From positions 1,860,001 through 1,924,000 of the forward strand of contig NZ_CP066801.1 of NCBI RefSeq assembly GCF_016598575.1: DNA of 64,000 bases, written 5' to 3'. Below are positions 59,074-63,467 of the stretch, piece by piece; within the stretch, counting starts at the first letter, position 1, and each line of letters begins with the position of its first letter. Position numbers and translations under genes: made by a program. The notes under the pieces are model-generated. The model did no database searches, was not told the DNA's origin, and saw only the letters and a program-made list of their open reading frames with translations. This stretch comes from Streptomyces sp. HSG2 (lineage in GTDB: Bacteria > Actinomycetota > Actinomycetes > Streptomycetales > Streptomycetaceae).

Positions 59074-60747
59074 TCAGACCACCGGCGCGTCGACCCGCTC
59101 GACTCGCTGGGTACCGCTGCGGGTGCGGTAGGAGCGGGCCCACGAGACCGTGGCGTCGGCCTTGGTCCGGTCGGACAGGGTGTAGTAGTCCATCTGGGAA
59201 CGGTCGGCGGTCACGTCGAGCACGCCGTAGCCGTGGTTGTCCATGTCGACCCATTTGACGTGGCGGTTGGCGAGCCGCACGGCCCCGCTGGCGACGACCG
59301 AGACCGTGCCGGGCGCCACGCGCAGGACGTCGTCGAGGTTCTCCGTGGTCACCGAGGCCACCACGAACTCGGAGGCGGCGGAGGCCGAGAGCGGATAGGT
59401 CGCGGCCTTGACCGGCACGTCGTTGGCCCAGGCCGTGTGGATGTCCCCGGTGAGGAAGACGGTGTTCTCGATGCCGCGATCCACCAGGTGCCCGAGCAAC
59501 TCCCGGCGGTCGTCGGTGTAGCCGTCCCACTGGTCGACGTTGACCGCGAGCCCCTCGCGTGGCACCCCCAGGAGCTCGGCGAGCGGGGCGAGCAGATGGG
59601 CGGGCAGCGAACCGAAGGCGATCGGGGAGATCATCACCGAGGTGCCGACCAGCCGCCAGGTCGCCCGGGAGGACTCCAGTCCCGACTTCAACCAGTCCAA
59701 CTGCGCGCGTCCGGTGATGGTGCGATCCGGGTCGTCGACGTCCTTGCTTCCCACGGTCGCCTGCTGCGAGCGGAAGGACCGGAGGTCCAGCAGGTGCAGG
59801 TCGGCCAGTGTCCCGAAGCGCAGGCGTCGGTAGACCGTACCGGCGGTGGAGGCGCGGACCGGCATCCACTCGAAGTACGCCCGCTTCGCGGCGGCGGCGC
59901 GCGCGGCGTAGTCGCCCTCGCCGCCCGGGGTGTGGTTCTCCGCGCCGCCGGACCAGTTGTTGTTGGCTATCTCGTGGTCGTCCCAGATGGCGACGAGGGG
60001 GTGGGCGGCGTGCATCGCCTGGAGGTCGGCGTCGGTCTTGTAGGTGCCGTGCCGGAGGCGGTAGTCGGCCAGGGTGAGGATCTCGTGCGTGGGCTGGTGC
60101 CTCCTGATCACGTATTCCTCGTCGGGGATGCGGCCGGTGCCGTACTCGTAGATGTAGTCGCCGAGGTGGACGACGGCGTCCAGGTCGGTCCTCGCGGCGA
60201 GGTGTCGGTAGGCCGCGAAGTACCCCGACTCCCAGTTGGCGCAGGAGGCCACGCCGAACCGGAGGCGGGACACGGCGGCGTCCTCGGCGGGCGCGGTGCG
60301 GGTCCGGCCGACGGGCGACACCGCGCCCTGGGCGCTGAATCGGTAGTAGCAGACGGTGGCCGGGCCCAACCCCCGTACGTCGACCTTGACCGTGTGGTCG
60401 GACGCGGTGGTGGCGGTGGAGCTCCCCCGGGCCAGGATCCGGGTAAACCCGCGGTCGGCCGCGACCTCCCAGCCGACCTCGGTGTCCGGCCCCAGGCCGG
60501 AGCCGGGCCGGGCGTCGGGTGTCGGGGTGACGCGGGTCCACAGGAGGACGCCGTCGGGGAGCGGGTCGCCGGAGGCCACGCCGTGCAGGAAGAGCGGTCC
60601 GGTGTGCTCGGAGGACCGCGTGGCGGCGGGGAGCGAGGTGGCGGAGGCCGAGGCGGTGCCGGCCGTCAAGGAACCGGCGACGGCGGTGGCGGCAGCGGCC
60701 TTGACGACCGCGCGTCTGGTCGTGGTGGTGCTGTCTCTTCTCGTCAC
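59074..60747 (-). CDS. phoD: secreted alkaline phosphatase, PhoD family
   Basis: A 557-residue exported phosphodiesterase/phosphatase. A Tat signal ([20 protein letters not shown], cleavage near ASA) leads into the PhoD N-terminal domain ([20 protein letters not shown]) and the metallophosphatase core: [61 protein letters not shown] 60747 has TAGCCT (60761-60756) 8 nt upstream with a TGTCAG -35 at 17 nt, so it is probably leaderless. No tandem GTTCACC (PHO box) is seen upstream. Confidence 0.92.
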
Positions 60748-61533
60748 GCCCCGTCAGGCTACTGGGAGAACGGCGGGGCTGACAGGGCGTACGCCGTACC
60801 TTCCTCCGCCCGTCGTGCGCGGTCGGGCGGAGGAGGCGACGTGCGCCGGAGCCGACGGCAGGGTAGCGGGCGGGGGAGCCCGCGTGTGGGCAGGGCGGGG
60901 ACGTGGGGCCGGATTGTGCGCGCAGCGGGCGGGGGAGCCCGCGTGTGGGCAGGGCGGGGACGTGGGGCCGGATTGTGCGCGCGAGGACCGCCGCACCCCC
61001 GTCGTCGGGGGGCGGGACGACGGCGGTCCCCGCGCGACGCGCGTCGGCCGTGGAGCCAGGCGTCGCGTCCCTGGCGTCCGTGGAGGTCCGGGAGCCGCTC
61101 CGGAGGTCCTGACGCCGTTCGGCACCGATCGACCACGCTCCTCCCGCACGATCCCCGGGAACGGACCCGCGTCCGACCGACGCGCACAATCTGCCGGGCC
61201 GGTGTCAAGGGCGTGTTGCGCGGACGTGACGCGGGCGTAGCACTTCCGCGAAGCCTCCCGGACGGGGCGAACGAGCGTGCGCCCTCGCCTCTCGGCCACG
61301 GGATCGCGGTTCGCGGCGTGGGACCCGGGCCCCCGACTCCGGCGCCCCGTCCGAGGTCCCGCGCCCCTTTCCGGTGGCGGCGCGCCGAGGTCGTGCGTGT
61401 CTCGGCGGGCGTGTCCCCCGGCCGGAGTAGGCGAATTCCCCCGGGACACGGGCCGTCCTCGGGACATCCGGGGCCTCGAAGAGCGCCGATCGTGGTCAGG
61501 AGAACGCCAGCCCGTCAGCCGGAATGAGGAGTC
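60748..61533. other. 786-bp non-coding region with a tandem repeat
   Basis: No gene supported: open frames lack codon bias and family matches. It contains the phoD promoter at the left, the 59-bp tandem repeat (60865-60982), and an inverted copy of the repeat's GATTGTGCGCG core near 61173-61183. GAGGAG at 61525-61530 precedes the next small gene. Confidence 0.55.
60865..60982. repeat. perfect 59-bp direct tandem repeat, two copies
   Basis: Copies 60865-60923 and 60924-60982 are identical by my reading. Each holds a small hairpin GCGGGC-GGGGGA-GCCCGC followed by GTGTGGGCAGGGCGGGG and ending GGATTGTGCGCGC. The repeat lies about 120-235 bp upstream of phoD. Confidence 0.92.
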
Positions 61534-61731
61534 GTGACGAGCGTGACGCCCCCAATCGACGCAGCGCGCCTGCCCACCGGGCGTCTGTCGGAGGAGGACG
61601 CGGGAACCTCGCGTCGGGAGCCCCCGCCGACCGGTGCCACCCCCGCCTATCTTCTCGGCGGATCGGCGATCATCGGCGGAATCGCGGGCTGCGTCGTGGG
61701 CGCGGGGCTGGGCTTGGCCGTGATCGGCTGA
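61534..61731 (+). CDS. small Gly-rich hydrophobic protein A
   Basis: A 65-residue protein from GTG 61534. The hydrophilic N-terminal 38 residues (TSVTPPIDAARLPTGRLSEE ...) are followed by a 26-residue hydrophobic segment LLGGSAIIGGIAGCVVGAGL GLAVIG. That segment contains repeated GxxxG/GGxxGG spacing, a glycine zipper, and one Cys. GAGGAG/GGAG lies just upstream. It is followed 51 bp later by a second protein of the same design. I do not recognise a family. A small membrane protein or the precursor of a two-peptide bacteriocin-like toxin are both possible. Confidence 0.6.
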   Translation: MTSVTPPIDAARLPTGRLSEEDAGTSRREPPPTGATPAYLLGGSAIIGGIAGCVVGAGLGLAVIG

Positions 61732-61782
61732 CCGCCCTCGCCCCACCCCCGACGAACGTCCCCGAAAGGAACCCCGAGCGCC

Positions 61783-61974
61783 ATGACGATCGAGTCCGTG
61801 ATCGAGGAGTGCCACGCGCACCGACTCACCGAGCGGGACACCGGCACCGTCCGCACCACCGGCCACGTGATCGGGGTCGCCATGGCCGTGACGATGGTGA
61901 TGGCGGGAGCGGGCGGGTTCCTCGCCACCGTCGGGGCGGGAGTCGGCGTGGTCCACGCCGTTGTCGGCGGCTGA
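61783..61974 (+). CDS. small Gly-rich hydrophobic protein B
   Basis: A 63-residue protein from ATG 61783 with AAGGA about 11 nt upstream. The N-terminal 28 residues are charged (MTIESVIEECHAHRLTERDT GTVRT). The C-terminal part is hydrophobic and glycine-spaced: VAMAVTMVMAGAGGFLATVG AGVGVVHAVVGG. Same layout as the preceding small protein, so the pair probably works together. No immunity, protease or ABC exporter gene adjoins. Function unknown. Confidence 0.62.
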   Translation: MTIESVIEECHAHRLTERDTGTVRTTGHVIGVAMAVTMVMAGAGGFLATVGAGVGVVHAVVGG

Positions 61975-61982
61975 CCCCGAGA

Positions 61983-62020
61983 CCTCCTGCCGCCGGGCCC
62001 GCTGGTGCCCCGGCGGGAGG
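61983..62020. terminator. hairpin between small protein B and cbs
   Basis: CCTCC...CGCCGGG (61983-61997) pairs with CCCGGCGGGAGG (62009-62020), with a three-base bulge. It lies between convergent stop codons. Confidence 0.45.
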
Positions 62021-62066
62021 ACGGGGCACCCCGTCGGGCGCGGGACCGGCGCGTCCTCCGGGCGGA

Positions 62067-63467
<1,401 letters not shown>

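What the first reader, a model, noticed from the sequence alone, without database searches (positions are those of the whole stretch)
61534..61974. Tandem pair of about 64-residue glycine-zipper peptides
Two adjacent small genes encode proteins of nearly equal length (65 and 63 residues) and the same plan. Each has a charged 28-38 residue start and a hydrophobic C-terminal helix with repeated GxxxG spacing (GGSAIIGGIAGCVVGAG; GAGGFLATVGAGVG). Paired GxxxG helices are the hallmark of two-peptide (class IIb) bacteriocins and of small oligomeric membrane peptides. They have their own ribosome sites and follow a 786-bp non-coding region. No exporter or immunity gene is adjacent, which would be unusual for a classic bacteriocin, so a regulatory or toxin-like membrane peptide pair is an alternative.
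Basis: partly seen in the sequence, partly recalled or inferred. Interest (0 to 1): 0.62.

Follow-up and report, generated by a model that had tools for sequence, protein, structure and literature searches.

The report
Orphan tandem pair of membrane peptides
A Streptomyces-type chromosome carries two neighbouring tiny genes, duplicates of each other, that encode about 62-residue peptides with a shared soluble motif and a glycine-rich hydrophobic helix; they appear unique to this lineage, and the evidence does not support calling them a classic two-peptide bacteriocin.

Summary
Both genes are really there and are very probably genes. They are same-strand ORFs of 62-65 and 63 aa, each with a polar start and a hydrophobic Gly-rich end. 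None of 3000 shuffles of the intergenic stretch gave even one such ORF. They are tandem paralogues, and the motif occurs only at these two places in the 5.28 Mb genome. GxxxG spacing is not enriched for their composition. No relative was found in 393 congeners, family genomes, GTDB220 contigs, plasmids, viral contigs or family libraries. Class IIb bacteriocin is not supported: no Peptidase_C39 anywhere in the genome, no shared GG leader, no exporter or immunity gene recognised beside it. Daptide membership fails too (no ELExMEAP, no C-terminal Thr). Best guess: a lineage-specific pair of single-span membrane peptides whose cytosolic motif binds a partner and whose helices associate; trans-processed secreted peptides are the main rival. 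The upstream 'non-coding' region contains a conserved element, a candidate small RNA absent from Rfam.

The parts
61534..61731 (+). peptide 1 gene (65 aa from GTG 61534; probably 62 aa from GTG 61543)
   Evidence: ORF; GC3 0.83; KD19 2.30; motif shared with peptide 2
61526..61531 (+). GAGGAG ribosome-binding-site-like sequence of peptide 1
   Evidence: read in sequence; spacing 2 nt to GTG 61534, 11 nt to GTG 61543
61582..61614 (+). shared N-terminal motif RLSEEDAGTSR of peptide 1
   Evidence: pattern found only twice in the genome
61648..61728 (+). hydrophobic Gly-rich C-terminal helix of peptide 1 (YLLGGSAIIGGIAGCVVGAGLGLAVIG)
   Evidence: hydropathy; helix 36-65 in the AlphaFold model (low confidence)
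61783..61974 (+). peptide 2 gene (63 aa)
   Evidence: ORF; GC by position 0.70/0.52/0.92; single helix 3-62, mean pLDDT 87.6
61764..61770 (+). GAAAGGA ribosome-binding-site-like sequence of peptide 2, 12 nt before ATG
   Evidence: read in sequence
61822..61854 (+). shared N-terminal motif RLTERDTGTVR of peptide 2
61864..61971 (+). hydrophobic Gly-rich C-terminal segment of peptide 2 (HVIGVAMAVTMVMAGAGGFLATVGAGVGVVHAVVGG)
   Evidence: hydropathy

Best explanation
The two genes are a lineage-specific tandem duplication encoding two paralogous small membrane peptides, probably co-transcribed. Shown or strongly indicated: both frames are coding, they are related to each other, each has a polar N-terminus with RL[S/T]ExDxGTxR and a Gly/Ala/Val-rich hydrophobic C-terminal helix long enough to span a membrane, and no related sequence was found elsewhere. 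Inferred: the peptides insert with the N-terminus inside (arginines lie on the N-terminal side; nothing charged follows the helix), the small-residue helices pack with themselves or each other, and the cytosolic motif, more conserved between the two than most of the helix, docks to a common partner protein, so that the pair modulates a membrane or cytosolic target rather than killing competitors.
For: Shared motif with mostly third-position changes (codon-position differences 4/2/7); motif unique to this locus in the genome; coding-like GC pattern, strong for peptide 2; 0 of 3000 shuffles; membrane-length hydrophobic segments; helical models; no relatives in any collection searched; neighbours on both sides read as housekeeping-type genes, with no biosynthetic or export cluster recognised in the coding-ORF list.
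Against: No expression, translation, localisation or partner data. Peptide 1 alone has a weak coding signature (GC3 0.83, GC2 0.67). With no orthologue, selection cannot be measured between species. Topology rests on charge distribution only, and the models were made without alignments.
Confidence: 0.45

Rival explanations
1. Precursors of a secreted two-component membrane-active peptide. The shared motif is a leader recognised by modification, protease or export enzymes encoded elsewhere in the genome, and the Gly-rich C-terminal helices are the released products. The precursor plan is like that of daptides.
For: Architecture: common N-terminal motif plus divergent aliphatic C-terminal helices in tandem copies, the pattern described for daptide precursors (PMC10036551); two LanC-like genes exist elsewhere in the genome.
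Against: No modification, protease or transporter cluster recognised beside the pair; hydrophobic regions almost without Ser/Thr/Cys; no ELExMEAP motif and no C-terminal Thr (sequence); no NCBIfam match.
Confidence: 0.25
2. Small membrane toxin or autoregulatory peptide pair that depolarises the producer's own membrane, as in type I toxin-antitoxin systems, possibly controlled by a nearby RNA.
For: Short hydrophobic peptides; a conserved element lies about 280 bp upstream.
Against: The element is conserved in genomes that lack the pair at this position, so it is not its dedicated antitoxin; no antisense RNA over the pair was identified; no Rfam match; only a weak E=0.4 PADLOC match.
Confidence: 0.1
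3. Classic class IIb two-peptide bacteriocin with double-glycine leaders.
For: Two adjacent small peptides with Gly-rich helices; peptide 1 has LLGG followed by SAIIGG.
Against: No Peptidase_C39 domain in the genome (with working controls); the GG is not shared at an aligned place; no immunity or transporter gene recognised adjacent; GxxxG at chance level.
Confidence: 0.05
4. Non-functional or spurious ORFs in a young intergenic insertion, for example a decaying duplicate.
For: No orthologue anywhere searched; weak coding signature of peptide 1; the stretch between the conserved element and cbs is variable and carries a collagen-like gene in G193 instead.
Against: Shuffle test, shared motif with synonymous-type changes, plausible ribosome sites, GC3 0.92 in peptide 2.
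Confidence: 0.12

Closest known systems
Class IIb two-peptide bacteriocins
   Same: two adjacent small genes, Gly-rich helices
   Different: no shared double-glycine leader, no C39 transporter in the genome, no immunity gene recognised, GxxxG not enriched
Cdz system CdzC/CdzD of Caulobacter crescentus (PMC5380434)
   Same: tandem pair of small Gly/Ala/Val/Ile-rich proteins with glycine-zipper-like helices
   Different: Cdz proteins are 84-86 aa, sit beside the type I secretion genes cdzAB and the immunity gene cdzI, and the wider family has a leader ending in G[G/A/S] and a polar C-terminal tail; none of these is seen here
Daptide precursors (PMC10036551)
   Same: several similar short ORFs with a common N-terminal motif and an aliphatic, helical C-terminal part
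   Different: daptide motif ELExMEAP and invariant C-terminal Thr are absent; no aminotransferase, dehydrogenase, methyltransferase or RRE-protease genes recognised adjacent

Membership tests
Class IIb two-peptide bacteriocin | two adjacent small peptide genes | tested here: met
Class IIb two-peptide bacteriocin | double-glycine leader on both peptides | tested here: not met
   GG in peptide 1 has no aligned counterpart in peptide 2
Class IIb two-peptide bacteriocin | C39-peptidase ABC exporter | tested here: not met
   no PF03412 match in the whole genome
Class IIb two-peptide bacteriocin | adjacent immunity gene | tested here: not met
   flanking genes are PhoD-like phosphatase and cystathionine beta-synthase by my reading of the translations; no small membrane gene besides the pair
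Class IIb two-peptide bacteriocin | GxxxG motifs beyond composition | tested here: not met
   P 0.43 and 0.91
Class IIb two-peptide bacteriocin | synergistic antimicrobial activity | not testable with these tools
   needs an assay
Cdz-like glycine-zipper proteins | adjacent CdzAB-type type I secretion system | tested here: not met
   not recognised among the adjacent ORFs by reading; not searched genome-wide
Cdz-like glycine-zipper proteins | polar or charged C-terminal tail after the zipper | tested here: not met
   both end in the hydrophobic segment (AVIG, AVVGG)
Daptides | leader motif ELExMEAP | tested here: not met
   motif here is RL[S/T]ExDxGTxR; definition from PMC10036551
Daptides | invariant C-terminal Thr | tested here: not met
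   both end in Gly
Daptides | clustered oxidative decarboxylase, aminotransferase, methyltransferase genes | tested here: inconclusive
   not recognised by eye among adjacent ORFs; no profile scan of the neighbours or genome-wide search was run

The most novel reading that the evidence does not exclude
The pair founds an undescribed type of two-component peptide in which a short leader or docking motif RL[S/T]ExDxGTxR, served by machinery encoded in trans, delivers two different glycine-rich helices to the membrane or the outside.
Probability: 0.15. Interest if true: 0.65.

Novelty: new member of a known kind. Interest (0 to 1): 0.3.

Why it matters
Tandem paralogous small membrane peptides with one conserved soluble motif are good handles for finding a partner protein, and orphan genes in a sparse lineage show how such peptides arise. 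It also shows that Gly-rich composition alone makes GxxxG spacing look meaningful. The neighbouring conserved element may be a widely held Streptomyces small RNA not catalogued in Rfam.

Tried and rejected
Homology: p1 and p2 by tblastn in 61 relatives and 393 congeners; weak hits (E 0.0006-0.01) lie mostly in frames of 200 residues or more, and a recurrent p2 hit is the Gly-rich stretch of an unrelated protein of about 300 residues, so they were rejected as composition matches. A two-row profile in 298 family genomes found only the window itself above noise. GTDB220 contigs, plasmids, viral contigs (18, 41), Pfam, NCBIfam, PHROGs, PADLOC and PDB gave nothing convincing; the PHROG match (phrog_19803, E 0.0077, unknown function, Gly-rich part only) was set aside. 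A remnant of the ~150-aa membrane gene found beside cbs in relatives was considered and rejected: that gene lies on the other side of the conserved element. A single gene split by a stop was considered because both frames coincide, but each half has its own start, ribosome site and motif copy. An antisense gene (61647-61928, -) was considered: its GC1 is below GC2, unlike real genes here, and the antisense reading of the motif is less conserved (5/10 vs 7/11). LanC-like loci elsewhere in the genome gave no link to the pair.

Full report
What is there. Between a PhoD-like phosphatase gene (59074-60747, -) and a cystathionine beta-synthase gene (cbs, 62067-63467, -), both named from my reading of the translations, are two + strand ORFs: peptide 1 (61534-61731) and peptide 2 (61783-61974), 51 bp apart and in the same frame. 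They run towards the 3' end of cbs, 92 bp away. The start of peptide 1 is more likely GTG 61543, because the GAGGAG is 11 nt from it but only 2 nt from GTG 61534.

Are they genes? Peptide 2 has a codon-position GC profile like its neighbours (0.70/0.52/0.92); peptide 1 is weaker (0.71/0.67/0.83). Shuffling the intergenic stretch 61254-62066 with dinucleotides preserved gave no ORF of 50-90 aa with a membrane-grade hydrophobic segment in 3000 trials, while the real sequence has two side by side. The strongest evidence is internal: the two polar N-termini share RL[S/T]ExDxGTxR (RLSEEDAGTSR / RLTERDTGTVR; BLASTP 7 of 11 identical, E=0.001 for the single comparison; P=0.0003 against shuffled N-termini and 0.003 for whole peptides with halves shuffled). 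In that motif the DNA differs at 4, 2 and 7 first, second and third codon positions, as expected for selected coding sequence. The degenerate motif occurs only at these two places in the genome, and the reversed control pattern nowhere. Thus they are tandem paralogues; alignment from the motif onward gives 42% identity.

GxxxG. Three such spacings in the helix of peptide 1 and one in peptide 2 are not more than shuffles of the same residues give (means 2.3 and 1.8). The helices are rich in small residues; the zipper spacing is not evidence in itself. AlphaFold without alignments gives a helix for residues 36-65 of peptide 1 in a tethered read-through chain (mean pLDDT 65) and one helix 3-62 for peptide 2 (mean pLDDT 88); these do not show whether the two helices pair.

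Relatives. None was found. The nearest neighbouring-gene match (cbs C-terminal part, 86%) is G193, where the corresponding stretch has a remnant of a second cbs 3' end and a collagen-like secreted protein gene; the next, G021 (74%), has no pair. So the pair is probably a recent arrival or innovation in a variable spot beside cbs.

Function. The known machinery of class IIb bacteriocins is absent: no Peptidase_C39 domain in the genome although controls ring, no adjacent transporter or immunity gene recognised (by reading), no aligned GG leader. Cdz (PMC5380434) and daptides (PMC10036551) are the closest described pair systems; each fails defining features (see membership test). The two LanC-like loci in the genome are far away, and the peptides have almost no Ser/Thr/Cys in the hydrophobic part. 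I therefore favour resident small membrane peptides with a docking motif (0.45), with trans-processed secreted peptides next (0.25). Topology, packing and partner are inference.

The upstream region. The 786-bp 'non-coding' stretch holds, at 60979-61253, an element conserved at 72-87% in all 29 relatives fetched, always near the 3' end of cbs. Read on the minus strand it has a near-invariant CGGAGCGGCTCCCGG hairpin with GGACCTCC before it and ACCTCC after it, and a 3' GC-rich hairpin. Consensus folding gives 52 pairs but only 3 with compensatory changes, and the single-sequence fold is not better than shuffles (z -0.9), so sequence conservation is clear but structure is not proven by covariation. 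It has no Rfam match. It exists independently of the peptide pair. A perfect 59-bp tandem duplication (60865-60982) adjoins it.

Noticed in passing
window 60979-61253 (-): Intergenic element conserved at 72-87% DNA identity beside the 3' end of cbs in all 29 Streptomyces relatives fetched; minus-strand reading has a CCTCC-bearing hairpin and a 3' GC-rich hairpin; no Rfam match. Candidate small RNA.
   Followed up: partly
window 60865-60982: Perfect head-to-tail duplication of 59 bp next to that element.
   Followed up: no
L043 6880-7900: In G193 a leftover of a second cbs 3' end and a gene for a secreted protein with a short collagen-like GPAGPQGPPGPPGPP stretch lie between the conserved element and cbs, suggesting replacement or duplication of the cbs end.
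   Followed up: partly
L015-L042, first about 1200 bases (for example L017 507-1118, L024 647-1126): Many relatives have beside cbs a roughly 150-aa protein (DARDADLKKELDATLQARRELGEEYESALVDSFLEKVDQRIDGAVERR..., with a hydrophobic C-terminal part) that is absent at this place in the window.
   Followed up: no
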